From Nitrospirota bacterium (GTDB lineage Bacteria > Nitrospirota > Leptospirillia > Leptospirillales > Leptospirillaceae): DNA of 38,157 bases. This document shows, piece after piece, positions 24,280-29,700 of this stretch (positions are counted from its first letter, which is position 1; every line of letters starts with the position of its first letter). Below the pieces are notes generated by a model that did not search any database, was not told where the DNA came from, and saw only the letters and a program-made list of their open reading frames with translations. The stretch is from the NCBI GenBank assembly GCA_027366615.1, contig DAHXNG010000077.1, forward strand, positions 1 to 38,157, in the 5' to 3' direction. The position numbers and the translations under genes are program-made.

Positions 24280-25100
24280 ACAGACTCGTCACCTTTACAT
24301 CCGACTTCGGACGACAGGACTCCTACGTCGCCAGTGTCAAGACGCGCATTCTCGCCGGAGCTCCGGAAACCATGATAGTCGACGTGACCCACGACGTCCG
24401 GGCCTTCACCCCGGTTCTGGCCCTGCCCCCCCTCATCGAGATCATGCAGGTCGCCCCTCCCGGTACGATCCACCTTGTGGTGGTCGACCCAGGCGTAGGG
24501 AGCGAGAGGAGAGCCCTGGCGGGAGAGGGGCGGGGGTATTTCTTCGTCCTGCCGGACAACGGCCTTCCCGCCCGGCTCTCGGAGTGGTTTGATGAGATCC
24601 GGTTCTACCATCTCGACCACCCCGAGCTCTTTGGCGGACGGGCCACTGCCACCTTCCAGGGTAGGGATCTCTTTGCCCCGGCTGTAGCCGCCCTGGCCAC
24701 GGGAAAGGCCACCCCGAAAGAGCTCGGCCCCCTCGTCCCGACGGGGTCGCTCCTGCCGGAGGAGGGGCTCGGACCGGCAGAGGCGGACCGGCTCCTTATC
24801 TGGAATACCGATCGCTTCGGAAACCTCCTCCTCGAGTTTTTCGCGACGCTCCCGCCGGAGGATGTTCGGGTCGTCCATCGGGGACGGCGTATTCCCTATG
24901 TTTCCCGATACCAGGAGGTCGCCCGGGGAGAGCTGGGCTGCCTCATCAACAGCACCGGGTGGCTTGAGATCTTCTGCCGGGAGGGAGACGCCTCAAAGAA
25001 AACGGGACTCGGCGTGATGGACCGGGTGGCGGGAGAAATCGAAGGAGGATCGGGGAGGAAGCTACGATTCTCCGGTCGGGGAGATTCGCCGACTCAGTGA
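24276..25100 (+). CDS. SAM hydroxide adenosyltransferase family protein (DUF62)
   Basis: The family hydrolyses S-adenosylmethionine to adenosine and methionine and is related to fluorinase and chlorinase. The 274-residue protein has VTFTSDFGRQDSYVASVK (5-22), GTIHLVVVDPGVGSERRA (63-80), PDNG (93-96) and TFQGRDLFAP (126-135). The reported catalytic triad is Asp-Arg-His. Asp71 and Arg78 are present with the expected spacing of seven, but the His of the usual FHGRD motif is Gln128 here. The GTG start follows GGGAG at eight bases and overlaps the methyltransferase stop. The 3' end overlaps the convergent lipoprotein gene by 7 bp. Confidence 0.9.
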   Translation: MNRLVTFTSDFGRQDSYVASVKTRILAGAPETMIVDVTHDVRAFTPVLALPPLIEIMQVAPPGTIHLVVVDPGVGSERRALAGEGRGYFFVLPDNGLPARLSEWFDEIRFYHLDHPELFGGRATATFQGRDLFAPAVAALATGKATPKELGPLVPTGSLLPEEGLGPAEADRLLIWNTDRFGNLLLEFFATLPPEDVRVVHRGRRIPYVSRYQEVARGELGCLINSTGWLEIFCREGDASKKTGLGVMDRVAGEIEGGSGRKLRFSGRGDSPTQ

Positions 25101-25501
25101 TCCTTTCTCAGCTTGTAGGGAAAATTGTCGTAATAATAGTCGGGGGGCAGGTTCTGGAGCAGGTCGGGAATTTTGTCTCCCTCGATGGCCTCCCAGGGGC
25201 CCTTCAGATCTTCCGACCGGTACCATTGATCCTGATAGTACTGGTAGTAGACCCCGTCCCGCAGATAGAGGGGACGGCTTGATGTCAGGAAGATATAGAG
25301 GTTTGTCCGGGGAAGAAGGACCGGGGTCGACTGCCCCTCAAAACGGATCGGGGTAGGCTGGTCGTCCACCGACACCGCCCCCTCCCCGGGAGCATTCGAG
25401 GCACATCCTGCTCCAACGAGAAGTGCTGCGGACAGCATGAAAGGAATCGCCCATCCCTTGACTCCCCCCCCGATTCTTCCTAGAATGGCCTTCGTGTCCA
25501 C
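25094..25501 (-). CDS. Small Tyr-rich lipoprotein of unknown function
   Basis: The 135-residue protein has a signal peptide with a hydrophobic stretch (about 17-31) and a weak lipobox VGAGC with Cys33, so it is probably a lipoprotein. The C-terminal half is rich in Tyr and Trp: LYLRDGVYYQYYQDQWYRS (about 78-96), then DLKGPWEAI. Such GVYYxYxxxxWYxSxxxxGPW patterns occur in exported proteins of unknown function. The GTG start follows AGGAGGGAGG. It is 69 bp downstream of the Fur-family gene and likely the last gene of the RND-lipoprotein-Fur unit. Confidence 0.8.
   Translation of the reverse strand: MDTKAILGRIGGGVKGWAIPFMLSAALLVGAGCASNAPGEGAVSVDDQPTPIRFEGQSTPVLLPRTNLYIFLTSSRPLYLRDGVYYQYYQDQWYRSEDLKGPWEAIEGDKIPDLLQNLPPDYYYDNFPYKLRKDH
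25458..25486 (+). promoter_or_regulatory. Near-consensus sigma-70 promoter, antisense to the Tyr-rich lipoprotein gene
   Basis: TTGACT (25458-25463), exactly 17 bp, then TAGAAT (25481-25486) on the plus strand. It is one of the best promoter-like matches seen in the window. Transcription would start near 25493, at the GTG of a small hydrophobic ORF, and would run antisense into the 3' end of the Fur-family gene. Confidence 0.5.
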
Positions 25502-25619
25502 AAACCCTCCCTCCTATCTGAAGCCTGTTCTTCTCATCGTGGCCCTGCTCCTTCTTCTGGGTGCCGGGCTCTATCTTGCCTCGAGCGAGCTCCCCACCTT
25601 CAAGCCTCTGGGTCCCTGA
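25494..25619 (+). CDS. Possible leaderless small membrane protein
   Basis: A 41-codon frame from GTG encodes a polar N-terminus (STNPPSYLKP), a strongly hydrophobic helix (VLLIVALLLLLGAGLYLA) and a short tail, as in one-helix small membrane proteins. There is no Shine-Dalgarno; instead the GTG lies where transcription from the TTGACT-N17-TAGAAT promoter should start, suggesting leaderless translation. An in-frame ATG at 25485 overlaps the -10 and could not be used from this promoter. The frame overlaps antisense the first codons of the Tyr-rich lipoprotein gene and the last 49 bp of the Fur-family gene, whose tail there is beyond the conserved domain. A chance hydrophobic frame or an antisense RNA is the alternative. 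Confidence 0.35.
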   Translation: MSTNPPSYLKPVLLIVALLLLLGAGLYLASSELPTFKPLGP

Positions 25620-26068
25620 CCCCTCGCTCCCGGAGCGGCCTCCCGTTTCGAGCGGCAGGCAGAGCAGATTCCCTCGATGTCGAACCGATGCACCGCCTCA
25701 GAGTACCCTTCCCGCCTTACCCTCTCGTCGATCACCGCCTCCAGAGGACAGAAATCGATGTGTCGGACCTCTCCGCAAACCCGGCAGACCAGGTGGTGGT
25801 GGTGGCCGGCCATCCCCACGATATAGCCATCCTCCCCCTCCTCCCGGTGCATCCGCTCGAGAACGCCGAGACGCAGGAACAGGTCGATGGTCCGGAACAG
25901 GGTCGCCCGGCCAAGATCAGGATGAGTTTCCTCCATGCGCCGCTGAAGATCCGCGACGGAAAAGATCCCGGAAAAATGGACAAGCTCCGCCACAATGGCG
26001 GAACGCTGTGGCGTCAGCCGAACACCATGGTGCTCGATGGCCCGACGCATCTCTTCAAGCGTATACAC
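25571..26068 (-). CDS. Fur-family metal-dependent repressor
   Basis: The 165-residue regulator has the winged-helix DNA-binding part (GVRLTPQRSAIVAELV, then LGRATLFRTIDLFLRLGVL) and the metal-binding dimer domain with HHHHLVCRVCGEVRHIDF (89-106). Two CxxC pairs (Cys95/98 and Cys135/138) should form the structural zinc site. Motifs do not settle between Fur, PerR and Zur. About 25 residues after the last CxxC are unlike the family. GTG start with GGAT upstream. It lies 39 bp downstream of the RND-linked lipoprotein gene, so it may regulate that unit; a 7-1-7 palindrome upstream of the RND gene is a candidate operator. Confidence 0.9.
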   Translation of the reverse strand: MYTLEEMRRAIEHHGVRLTPQRSAIVAELVHFSGIFSVADLQRRMEETHPDLGRATLFRTIDLFLRLGVLERMHREEGEDGYIVGMAGHHHHLVCRVCGEVRHIDFCPLEAVIDERVRREGYSEAVHRFDIEGICSACRSKREAAPGARGQGPRGLKVGSSLEAR

Positions 26069-26107: not shown

Positions 26108-26743
26108 TCAACGGTCGACCAAGAGAAACGAGAAGACCTTAAGGGGACTCTGGGGATCGAGGAGCTTTTGGATGAAGTCCCCGAGGAATGTGAACTCGTT
26201 GACAACCTTGGGAGTTCCGGGCGCGACCGTCAGAATGAGAAGAGGATCGGTGCAGCCGTTGACGTAATTTCCGATCCCTATGCCCTTTTGGCTGTCGACC
26301 GCCACGGGAGAGAGCGTTCGCAGGAAGCGGTCAAGGTCGGGGTGAAAGTAGAACCTCCGGTCGATCCTGTTGTTCCAGTCCGTTCCCTTGACCTCAACCG
26401 ACTGAACATACCCGTTTTCCCGTCCAATGAAGCGGACGATCACGTTGCGGTATCGGGAAGGCAACTTCACGACGCGGTTATGTTCACAGTGGATTACATA
26501 TGGGTGATCCGCATCGAGCCGGATTGTATAGGGAAGCTCGTAGGGAAGGGCCTTCCTGTTGTAGAAGGGATTGATGGCCCGCACGATGATCCCGTTGGAG
26601 CTGGCGTCGGGTGTCAGTCCAGCCGAATTAAGGGTCGGATGAGGGTGGTTGAATGTGCACCCTCCAAGAATTCCCATCAAAAGAATCGCTCCGAAAAGGA
26701 GCCCCATCGCCCCCGTCCGTCCGATCCGCTTCTCAAGTCCCAT
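26108..26743 (-). CDS. Lipoprotein of unknown function coupled to an RND pump gene
   Basis: I do not recognise this 211-residue protein. It has a lipoprotein signal peptide ending in LGGC (Cys29). The mature part contains ELPYTIRLDADHPYVIHCEH, a basic strand region (RYRNVIVRFIGRENG) and a C-terminus ending KVFSFLLVDR. It carries three further features of note: a second Cys in IHCEH, one in VNGCTDP, and no repeat or enzyme motif. The ATG at 26743 has AGGAGG seven bases upstream and lies 11 bp inside the end of the RND gene, so the two are co-translated. A periplasmic accessory role for the pump is a guess from position only. Confidence 0.8.
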   Translation of the reverse strand: MGLEKRIGRTGAMGLLFGAILLMGILGGCTFNHPHPTLNSAGLTPDASSNGIIVRAINPFYNRKALPYELPYTIRLDADHPYVIHCEHNRVVKLPSRYRNVIVRFIGRENGYVQSVEVKGTDWNNRIDRRFYFHPDLDRFLRTLSPVAVDSQKGIGIGNYVNGCTDPLLILTVAPGTPKVVNEFTFLGDFIQKLLDPQSPLKVFSFLLVDR

Positions 26744-29700
26744 GACGTTCCTCCTCCTTATGTATCCTCGGTTCCTCAACTTGTCCCCATCTTTCGGACA
26801 GGAGTACGACCCTGGCATAGACGACGGGCACCAGGAAAAGCGTAAAGATCATCGACGACAGAAGCCCCCCGATCACGACGACCGCCATCGACTCTCGGAT
26901 TCGGCCGCCGGCACCGAGACCCACGGCCATGGGGAGCATTCCGAAGACCATGGCAAGGGTCGTCATGGCAATGGGGCGAAGCCTGATCCTGGCCGAAAGT
27001 CTCGCCGCCTCCCGCGGGTCCTTTCCCAGCCGCCGCTGCCGGTTGGCGTGATCCACTAGAAGAATAGCATTCTTTGTCACCAATCCAAACAGAATGATGA
27101 GGCCGATAGCCCCCATCATATTGACCGAGATTCCGGAAATCCAGAGCCCCAGCACCGCCCCGATAACCCCGAAGGGAATCGAGACCATGATCACAAGCGG
27201 AAGGAGAAGGCTCCCGAAGAGGAGGGCAAGGATCAGGAAGACACCCGCCACGGAGACGAGGACCGCCGTCAGGATCTGTCCCTTTGCATCCCGGAGAACA
27301 TCGGCATTGCCCACATATCGAAGGCGATAGGCCGGGGGGAGAGACTTCCGGGCCCACCGGTCGACCGAGTCCATCGTCGCTCCCAGGGAGAGCGGCGGAA
27401 GAATCTGGGCAGAGACGGTAAGGGAGGGACTCCGGTCATCGCGGTTTTCCCTCAGGCTCGCCGTCTCACGTCGAAGTGCTGCCACCGAAGAAAGAGGAAC
27501 GGTCCGGCCGGGAGTGACGGGAAAGGGAAGCTGGCCCACCTTCCTCATGGAGAGAGCATCGGAGGGCGACAGGAGGACCCGGAGAGGTCGGAGCCCCGAG
27601 GCGGTCTCAACCATTCCGGCCGGGGCCCCCTCTGTCAAGGTCGAAAGCCAGGCAGCCAGACGTCCTGGCGTGAGAAAAAAGCGCGCCATGGCCTCCGGAG
27701 TCGGCTGCACGACAATCCGGGATCCTGCCCCCCCCGAGGAGGTCCGCACATCCCGCATCCCGGGAATGGCGGCGAGTGTTGCGACGAGATCCTCCCCCAG
27801 CCGATCGAGGACCTTTGAATCCGGACCGAGAAGAAAGCACTGAAAGGGCGGTGTCTCACCTGTCCCCCCCAAGGGGCCCGCCCGGCCGATGGAACCCGAG
27901 ACCCCGGGGGTCGCCACAAGAATCTTCCGGGTCCGCTCCATCTCCCGGGTGTCCGAGACGGTGCGGCGGGAGAGGTCGACCAACGTGACATAGAGAAAGC
28001 CCTCCGACGGAGGCGTTCCCTCTCTTCCCCCGGCCCTGGCCAGGACAGAGCGCACCCCCGAAAGCCCCCGGACCTTCCCGGCAATCGCCTCAAGAATCCG
28101 GTCGGTTCTTTCGAGGCTGGGAGAGCCGGAGACCCGGAGGTGAACGAGGAAGCTTCCCCGGTCCTCCTCCGGAATCAGGTTCCAGGGAAGCCGCTTTGCC
28201 AGAAGAAGCGACCCGGAAAGCAGAAGCAGGGATCCCAGGATCAGGAGGAGGGGGCGGTCCATGGCAACCTCAAGCCCCCGTTCATAGAGGTCTCCCACCC
28301 GGCGTCCGAACCGGACGATCGCCGGAAAGGGGCGGGGATCGTCGGAGCCGCCCCGCCTCCGGGAGCGTCCGGCCAGGACCGGCGTGACTGTCAGAGAGAT
28401 AAGGAGGGAGGCCAGAACGGCAATAGAGACGGTCCAGCCGAACTCCCGAAAAAACTCGCCCAGAACTCCGTGCATCATGGCCATGGGAGCAAAGACGGCC
28501 ACGACGGAGAGCGTGGTGGCGACTACCGCCCGCACGATTTCTCCCACCCCGGAGCGGGCGGCATCGGAGAGCGTCTCCCCCATCGATCGGTGGCGGTTGA
28601 TGCTCTCGAGAACAACGATCGCGTCGTCGATGAGAATGCCTACGACAAGAGAGAGCGCCAGCATCGTCAGGGTATTGAGGGTGAATCCGAAGAGGTGGAC
28701 AAGGGGGAAAACGGCCAGGATGGAGGCGGGTATTGCCACAGCCGCCACGGCAGTCTCGCGGAGGTTGCCCAAAAAGACAAGGATCGAAAGAACCGCAAGG
28801 AGGCCTCCCAGGACAAGGGTCTCGAGGAGTTCGCGGTTGTTTTTTGCGATCTCGATGGAGCGGTCCATGCGAACGGCGGCCGGGATCCCCTTCAAGACCG
28901 GAAGGCCGGGAGCACCGGGGCGGGTCAGTGCCGCCAGACGAAGGCGAATCCGGGAGGAGAGGGCGACAAGATTGGCTCCCGAAGCCGCAAAGACGCGAAG
29001 CGCAATGGCCGGCTTCCCGTCGAAGCGAAAAAGGTCGGCCATTTGCCGGGGGCCGGTGGAGATGGTGGCGATCGATGAGAGGGGAACGCTGTGTCCCGAC
29101 GGAAGGGGAACGGAGAGAGCGCCCAGATTGGGGCGGGCCAGAGGGATTCCCCGGACCTCAAGCGCCGTCGACTGTCTGTCGTCTGCGACCTGTCCTGCCG
29201 GATAGTCCCGACCCCGCTCCCGGAGCCACAGGGCAAGCTTCGGAATCGAGATCCCCTCCTTTTTCAGGGTCTCGGCGGTCAGGGTGAGGCGTACCTCTTC
29301 TTCAGGAGGCCACAGAGCCTCGATCTTCCCGACCCCGGAAAGCCTTTCGAGAGCCGGAACAAGGGTCGATGCGACATAGGCGGCCGACGGATCCCCGACC
29401 CGTTCGGGAAAAAGGATCCACAAAAGGGGCTGGCGCGTCGGGTTCTCCCGTTTGACCCAAACCGAGGAGACCGACTTCGGGAAGGAGGCCCGGAGATGTC
29501 TCACCACCCGTCCCACGCGGGCCCGGGTATCCGAGGAAAGCTCCGTATCCTTGAAGACCGCCGTCACGACCGCCCCCCCCGAGACAACGGTCGACTGGAC
29601 ATGCAGAATCCCCGGAAGGGCCGAGATCTCTGCCTCAAGCGGTACGACGATTCTTTTCGTGATGCCGTCGGGAGACTCGCCCGGATCGATGACCGTGACG

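What the first reader, a model, noticed from the sequence alone, without database searches (positions are those of the whole stretch)
25458..25619. Near-consensus promoter feeding a possible leaderless one-helix membrane protein antisense to two genes
TTGACT-N17-TAGAAT is among the best promoters in the window and predicts a start at or beside the GTG of a 41-codon frame with a clean transmembrane helix. The frame overlaps the 5' end of a lipoprotein gene and the non-conserved 3' tail of a Fur-family gene on the other strand. It may be a hidden small protein, an antisense RNA regulating fur/lipoprotein, or both.
Basis: partly seen in the sequence, partly recalled or inferred. Interest (0 to 1): 0.55.

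Follow-up and report, generated by a model that had tools for sequence, protein, structure and literature searches.

The report
Conserved leaderless small membrane protein gene
A tiny gene hidden on the opposite strand between two ordinary genes appears to encode a 41-residue membrane protein that has been kept, together with its own promoter placed so that the message would begin at the start codon, across a family of bacteria.

Summary
TTGACT-N17-TAGAAT-N7-GTG lies at 25458-25496 and opens a 41-codon frame (25494-25619, + strand). The same frame, between the same fur-family and lipoprotein genes, is in 18 of 21 held genomes of the family (4 of 5 genera); one of the 3 misses is a contig break. 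In all 18 the order is exactly TTGAC[AT]-N17-TA[AG]AAT-N7-[AG]TG, with no Shine-Dalgarno sequence. The promoter hexamers are 98-100% conserved inside DNA that is only 55-60% conserved. The protein has 41-42 residues in every genome, one predicted transmembrane helix and the tail LPxFxxxGP. Substitutions favour synonymous sites in this frame. The Fur stop codon wanders from +40 to +129, so Fur does not explain the conservation.

Best explanation: a gene for a single-pass inner-membrane micro-protein, expressed as a leaderless mRNA. The start point, translation and function are inferred, not shown. The anatomy (opposite-strand gene inside an apparent fur-lipoprotein operon, covering the lipoprotein's ribosome site) also fits a noncontiguous operon, untested. 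The protein has no match above cut-off in Pfam or NCBIfam and none in the PDB. Its parts are of known kinds; the protein family and its doubly overlapped, leaderless arrangement look new.

The parts
25458..25463 (+). -35 hexamer TTGACT of the small gene's promoter
   Evidence: TTGAC invariant in 18 of 18 genomes, flanks about 60% conserved
25464..25480 (+). 17-base promoter spacer; variable sequence, fixed length
   Evidence: length 17 in 18 of 18, mean column identity 59%
25481..25486 (+). -10 hexamer TAGAAT
   Evidence: TA[AG]AAT in 18 of 18; mean column identity 98%
25487..25493 (+). 7-base gap to the start codon; predicted transcription start at or next to 25494
   Evidence: length 7 in 18 of 18, sequence 55% conserved; start point itself not measured
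25494..25619 (+). 41-codon gene for a single-pass membrane protein (with stop codon)
   Evidence: found in 18 of 21 family genomes; pN/pS 0.43 over codons 2-41, 0.28 over codons 27-41; helix 9-31 in the AlphaFold2 model, mean pLDDT 82
25094..25501 (-). lipoprotein gene (135 aa); its start codon overlaps the small gene's 5' end, and its signal-peptide codons contain the promoter
   Evidence: orthologues in all 18; I6, L7, V14, K15 invariant where the promoter hexamers lie
25505..25515 (-). purine-rich AGGAGGGAGGG, ribosome site of the lipoprotein gene; complementary to codons 4-8 of the small gene
   Evidence: sequence; SD-like core found upstream of the lipoprotein start in 13 of 18 genomes
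25571..26068 (-). Fur-family regulator gene; its variable tail overlaps the small gene's 3' end by 49 bases
   Evidence: Pfam FUR E 1.3e-23; stop position varies from +40 to +129 relative to the small start in 18 genomes
26108..26818 (-). second lipoprotein-like gene upstream of fur in the conserved block (start codon uncertain)
   Evidence: tblastn matches beside the small gene in 6 of 6 loci examined, 4 genera

Best explanation
It is a real protein-coding gene. A sigma-70-type promoter inside the lipoprotein's signal-peptide codons fires on the + strand and starts RNA at, or within a base or two of, the GTG/ATG. The ribosome then initiates on this leaderless message and makes a 41-42 residue protein. 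The protein sits in the inner membrane as one helix (residues about 9-31), with the basic N-terminus inside and the conserved 10-residue tail (LP-x-F-xxx-GP) outside. The likeliest job is a small accessory subunit or modulator that docks by its helix and periplasmic tail onto a larger envelope complex, possibly one encoded by the neighbouring block (RND efflux pump, two lipoproteins). Shown here: conservation, frame, promoter-start geometry, predicted helix. Inferred: transcription start, translation, membrane orientation, partner and function. The confidence given is for the leaderless protein gene; for the accessory-subunit role alone I would say 0.3.
For: Frame in 18 of 21 family genomes, 4 of 5 genera; 41 residues in 16 and 42 in 2, no break. 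pN/pS over 16 equal-length genomes: 0.43 (codons 2-41), 0.41 (10-26), 0.28 (27-41), with no stop in 16 of 16; the four frames that do not share its wobble positions give 1.11-2.00 over codons 2-41. The protein is kept where Fur does not reach: overlap is -3 in G009, 4 in G012 and G017. Promoter TTGAC / TA[AG]AAT 100% / 98% conserved against 55-60% around it; spacer always 17, gap always 7. No SD core upstream in 18 of 18. The same arrangement gives 37 hits in 5 family genomes against 1 for the backwards pattern; 24 of the 30 loci read open a frame of 40 codons or more, 5 of them this gene, others including CbiX, ArsR-type, AAA and BrnT genes. Helix 9-31, mean pLDDT 82; hydropathy maximum 2.5-2.8 in 18 of 18. 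A -10 box about 10-12 bp upstream of the start is used as the sign of leaderless genes (PMC3160421, passages); D. radiodurans -10 motifs lie about 6-7 bp upstream of the ORF (PMC12340547, passages).
Against: No RNA or protein data for any of these genomes. The TTG of the -35 box is in frame and open to the start in 18 of 18, so a longer product starting upstream is not formally excluded. GTG is much less efficient than AUG as a leaderless start in E. coli (PMC9031893, passages). The antisense frame in Fur's phase also has a low pN/pS (0.49) because its wobble positions coincide, although it is broken by stops in 16 of 16. The pN/pS of codons 2-9 is only 0.77. The 18 genomes are related, so counts are not independent events. 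Nothing specific supports the proposed partner beyond shared location and shared absence in genus g2.
Confidence: 0.82

Rival explanations
1. Bifunctional RNA in a noncontiguous operon (an addition to, rather than a replacement of, the best explanation): the small gene is a protein gene AND its mRNA is antisense to an internal untranslated stretch of a fur-lipoprotein transcript, masking the lipoprotein's ribosome site or inviting RNase III and polymerase collision, so the two sides regulate each other.
For: The small gene lies on the opposite strand between fur and lipoprotein in all 18 genomes. No sigma-70-like promoter (9 of 12 or better) within about 420 bases upstream of the lipoprotein in 17 of 18, and no intrinsic terminator between fur end and lipoprotein start in 17 of 18, as expected if the lipoprotein is read from fur. 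The S. aureus menE-menC-MW1733-ytkD case has the same layout (PMC7154746, passages).
Against: Read-through from fur was not tested; consensus scans miss other promoters. No conserved RNA structure of note. Overlap may be forced by gene packing and needs no function.
Confidence: 0.35
2. Translation starts upstream (TTG in the -35 box or ATG 25437), giving a longer protein, and the apparent promoter is coding sequence.
For: The frame is open upstream of the -35 box in all 18 as far as the TTG; the in-frame TTG is present in 18 of 18.
Against: The 12 codons between have diverged except where they spell the hexamers, and there the wobble bases are frozen as well. ATG 25437 is not a conserved start position (only codon offsets -12, -3 and 0 have a start codon in 4 or more genomes). 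In-frame stops occur further upstream at 5 places in the 18.
Confidence: 0.06
3. Purely non-coding antisense RNA; the open frame is a by-product of Fur-tail and lipoprotein codon bias.
For: Frames opposite genes in GC-rich DNA are often open; part of the frame lies opposite Fur codons.
Against: Fur's stop wanders over 90 bases while the small frame stays 41-42 codons; G009 has no overlap yet keeps the protein. Synonymous-site bias in the + frame. Consensus RNA structure only -2.6 kcal/mol over 126 columns; no Rfam match.
Confidence: 0.03
4. The promoter serves something else downstream and the frame is a chance hydrophobic ORF.
For: No terminator was found after the frame in 18 of 18, so the transcript may run on.
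Against: The next gene (fur) is on the other strand, so no recognised + strand gene nearby needs the promoter; the 7-base spacing to the start in 18 of 18 and protein conservation down to 46% identity are not chance.
Confidence: 0.02

Closest known systems
Leaderless ('TA-led', -10-adjacent) bacterial genes, e.g. Deinococcus-Thermus and Actinobacteria (PMC3160421, PMC12340547, PMC9031893; passages read)
   Same: -10 hexamer directly upstream of the start codon at a fixed short distance; no Shine-Dalgarno; GTG or ATG start
   Different: Here a full -35 box with a 17-base spacer is kept in every genome, whereas most Deinococcus -10-motif genes are reported to lack a classical -35 region; the clade is Nitrospirota, a word not found in those two survey texts
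Bacterial small single-helix membrane proteins (YohP, AcrZ, CydX, KdpF; names recalled; CydX and YohP papers also seen in the listing)
   Same: Under 50 residues, one predicted helix, no enzyme domain
   Different: No match above cut-off in Pfam or NCBIfam, none credible in the PDB; the conserved motif lies in the predicted outside tail; found only in one family
Noncontiguous operon of S. aureus, menE-menC-MW1733-ytkD (PMC7154746, passages read)
   Same: Opposite-strand gene sits between two genes that appear to form an operon, overlapping their shared transcript
   Different: Co-transcription not tested here; this gene is very short, leaderless, and overlaps coding sequence at both ends
Antiparallel overlapping genes such as laoB of E. 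coli O157:H7 (PMC5810103, search listing only)
   Same: Protein gene overlapping another gene on the opposite strand
   Different: Overlap is only at the two ends here, and the gene is conserved across 4 genera

Membership tests
Leaderless mRNA gene | -10 box placed so that transcription starts at the start codon | tested here: met
   TA[AG]AAT-N7-[AG]TG in 18 of 18
Leaderless mRNA gene | no Shine-Dalgarno sequence upstream | tested here: met
   none of six SD cores upstream in 18 of 18
Leaderless mRNA gene | mapped 5' end at the start codon | not testable with these tools
   no transcript data held
Small single-pass membrane protein | under 50 residues and under protein-level selection | tested here: met
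   41-42 residues in 18 of 18; pN/pS 0.43 over 16 of them
Small single-pass membrane protein | one transmembrane helix | tested here: met
   predicted only: hydropathy 2.5-2.8 in 18 of 18, helix 9-31
Small single-pass membrane protein | protein detected in the membrane | not testable with these tools
   needs proteomics or tagging
Noncontiguous operon | opposite-strand gene between genes of one operon | tested here: inconclusive
   position met in 18 of 18; operon status only suggested by absent promoter and absent terminator, each in 17 of 18
Noncontiguous operon | reciprocal regulation of the two transcripts | not testable with these tools
   needs expression data
TatA/B/E (PF02416) | match above the curated cut-off | tested here: not met
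   L014 protein 13.5 bits against cut-off 21; window protein no match
CydX (cytochrome bd subunit) | sequence match and linkage to cydAB | tested here: inconclusive
   no family match, but whether a CydX model is in those libraries was not checked; neighbours are fur, lipoproteins and an RND pump; CydX is reported from two Leptospirillum species in a cydABX context (PMC4325964, passages), not compared here

The most novel reading that the evidence does not exclude
A gene born by overprinting: in an ancestor of this family a promoter arose inside a lipoprotein's signal-peptide codons, turned the short gap between fur and the lipoprotein into a leaderless message for a membrane peptide, and the whole has been kept as a two-way device. 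The peptide works in the envelope while its mRNA pairs with the lipoprotein's ribosome site and the fur tail, coupling regulator and lipoprotein levels. The promoter has in turn frozen part of the lipoprotein's own sequence (invariant I-L and V-K opposite the hexamers).
Probability: 0.2. Interest if true: 0.75.

Novelty: new member of a known kind. Interest (0 to 1): 0.52.

Why it matters
It is a clear, testable case of a family-wide micro-protein gene of the sort that annotation tends to miss: short, GTG start, no ribosome site, overlapping genes at both ends. It also indicates that leaderless promoter-start units recur in this lineage, for which the searches made listed no map of transcription starts, and it shows promoter constraint visibly dictating residues of an overlapping protein. 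If the antisense coupling is real, it would be a noncontiguous operon kept over several genera.

Tried and rejected
Known family for the 41-mer: Pfam, NCBIfam and PHROGs gave nothing above cut-off or convincing (weak TatA, LPXTG-anchor and phrog_13825 helix matches rejected); the PDB profile search gave one match, E 0.87, an odorant receptor, rejected. Relatives outside the family: 395 phylum genomes gave matches at E 4e-4 to 0.01 in 21 further genomes, most of them short helix stretches inside longer frames, not taken as homologues (the few in short frames, such as two in G258, were not followed up). Structural RNA: rejected. tRNAs at other leaderless-like sites: none in the 8 loci scanned. 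Genus g2 (G014, G018): small gene, lipoprotein and second lipoprotein all undetected, so it gives no empty-site comparison. G007: the contig ends inside the lipoprotein gene, so its miss is not an absence.

Script faults seen and corrected: the printed lipoprotein segment for L014, L037, L038 and L040 was a stale value, and the lipoprotein frame was picked wrongly for L001, L002, L003 and L041; hold the correct ones. In one search the frame filter missed L003, L005 and L006; one search recovered them. Rows left out: L040 and L041 (one codon longer) were left out; alignments A1 and A3 hold 14 of the 18 sequences; 7 of the 37 hits were not fetched as loci and so not read.

Full report
What is there. 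In the window (contig C19 of a 1.38 Mb draft genome) the + strand reads TTGACT at 25458, a 17-base spacer, TAGAAT at 25481-25486, seven bases, and GTG at 25494, which opens 41 codons ending in TGA at 25619. On the - strand a lipoprotein gene starts at 25501 and a Fur-family gene (Pfam FUR, E 1.3e-23) ends at 25571. The frame therefore bridges the gap between the two, overlaps the lipoprotein's first codons by 8 bases and the Fur tail by 49. As a promoter match alone the site is unremarkable: 5 sites in the 20 kb scanned against 2.6 expected.

Conservation. A DNA search of 61 genomes found the region in 14. A profile of those 14 proteins (A1) found the gene in 18 of 21 genomes of the family: 13 of 14 in the window's genus, all 3 of genus g3, and the single members of g4 and g5, but neither of the two of g2. 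The one miss in the window's genus, G007, is a contig that ends inside the lipoprotein gene. Of 395 genomes drawn from the phylum, only those same 18 have a strong match; 21 more have weak matches (E 4e-4 to 0.01), most of them helix stretches of longer frames. The lipoprotein, in contrast, has matches in 67 of 395, so the small gene looks younger than its neighbour. G015 is a single 2,559,538-base contig, which I recall as the size of Leptospirillum ferrooxidans C2-3; on that recall the family is Leptospirillaceae, acidophilic iron oxidisers. Five loci from the named collection are titled Nitrospirae metagenome bins.

Protein or not. The product is 41 residues in 16 genomes and 42 in 2. Over the 16 equal-length genomes pN/pS is 0.43 in this frame (0.77 for codons 2-9, 0.41 for 10-26, 0.28 for 27-41), with no stop in any. 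The antisense frame in Fur's phase, which shares the wobble positions, scores 0.49 but has stops in 16 of 16; the other four frames score 1.11-2.00. Fur is not the cause: its stop lies anywhere from +40 to +129 after the small start, giving overlaps from 86 to -3 bases, and in G009, where there is no overlap, the protein is kept. Weak selection on codons 2-9 is understandable because in the window's genus these bases are also the lipoprotein's ribosome site: an SD-like core stands there in 13 of 18 genomes, and in none of the 5 outside the genus, where the lipoprotein start that I chose overlaps the small gene's ATG itself.

Promoter and start. All 18 genomes read TTGAC[AT]-N17-TA[AG]AAT-N7-[AG]TG. 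The columns of TTGAC are 100% conserved and those of the -10 box 98%, against 59% for the spacer, 55% for the seven-base gap and 60% upstream. The bases are fixed across codon boundaries and at wobble positions of both overlapping frames. On the other strand they force the lipoprotein's residues I6-L7 and V14-K15, which are invariant in an otherwise variable signal peptide. The start position is GTG in 13 and ATG in 5, and no SD core precedes it in 18 of 18. With a -10 box seven bases away, transcription would begin on the start codon or a base or so before it. The TTG of the -35 box happens to be in frame; I judge it a promoter element because the codons after it have diverged.

A leaderless habit. 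The pattern TTGACN-N15..17-TANAAT-N5..9-[AG]TG has 37 hits in five family genomes against 1 for the backwards pattern. Of the 30 hits fetched as loci, 24 open a frame of at least 40 codons, 5 of them this small gene. Ten of the other proteins were scanned; nine match Pfam families, including CbiX, an ArsR-type regulator, AAA_14/DUF4143 ATPases, an IF-2B-family enzyme, BrnT and Gp49; the MraZ one (L066) seems to have a better start at an internal ATG and may not be leaderless. So the arrangement is recurrent in this lineage. Leaderless genes with a -10 box near the start are a known bacterial class (PMC3160421, PMC12340547, PMC9031893; passages read). A search for 'leaderless' with 'Leptospirillum' returned two papers, listing only; a broader search listed no paper with Leptospirillum, and one search listed an expression study of L. 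ferriphilum (PMC9053815, listing only). None of the listings is a map of transcription starts in this group.

How it probably works. The helix is predicted with confidence (residues 9-31; hydropathy 2.5-2.8 in all 18). Basic residues before the helix suggest N-inside, C-outside (inference). The most conserved part is the helix end and the outside tail, G-L-Y-x-x-S-x-x-L-P-x-F-x-x-x-G-P, which suggests a docking surface. fur and the lipoprotein flank the gene in all 18, and the RND pump and second lipoprotein were found further upstream of fur in the 6 of 6 loci examined, one or more from each of 4 genera. The small gene and both lipoproteins are undetected in both members of genus g2 (both genomes incomplete). 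An accessory role in an envelope complex of this block is my best guess, not a result.

Antisense role. No sigma-70-like promoter was found in the 420 bases upstream of the lipoprotein in 17 of 18 genomes, nor an intrinsic terminator after fur in 17 of 18. If the lipoprotein is read from fur, the small mRNA is fully antisense to that transcript and covers the lipoprotein's ribosome site, which is the layout of a noncontiguous operon (PMC7154746, passages). RNA folding of the alignment is weak (-2.6 kcal/mol; 4 of 12 predicted pairs show changes on both sides) and Rfam has no match, so if there is regulation it would be by plain pairing or polymerase collision.

Verdict. Observation confirmed, interpretation supported. 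The gene is, on comparative evidence, a conserved leaderless micro-protein gene; the protein family has no convincing match in the libraries searched. Whether public annotations already list it could not be checked with these tools.

Noticed in passing
G000, G002, G012, G015, G017 (loci L044-L073): Near-consensus promoter ending 5-9 bases before a start codon recurs: 37 hits in 5 genomes against 1 in the backwards control, including CbiX, ArsR-type, AAA_14/DUF4143, BrnT and Gp49 genes. Leaderless expression seems to be a habit of this family.
   Followed up: partly
window 25458-25486, - strand (lipoprotein residues 6-7 and 14-15): The lipoprotein's invariant I-L and V-K lie exactly opposite the -10 and -35 boxes of the small gene: a promoter dictating residues of an overlapping protein.
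   Followed up: yes
L014, L037, L038, L040, L041: In the genera other than the window's, the likeliest lipoprotein start and the small gene's ATG overlap head to head as CATG.
   Followed up: partly
window 25097-25501 (-): The lipoprotein (no Pfam or NCBIfam match) belongs to a family with matches in 67 of 395 phylum genomes and conserved PLY..G.Y.Q and GPW motifs.
   Followed up: no
window 25571-26068 (-): Fur-family stop positions differ by up to 89 bases between relatives: the C-terminal tail drifts freely.
   Followed up: no
G014 and G018 (genus g2): The small gene and both lipoproteins of the block are undetected in both members of this genus, 87% and 64% complete; loss, replacement or assembly gaps.
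   Followed up: no
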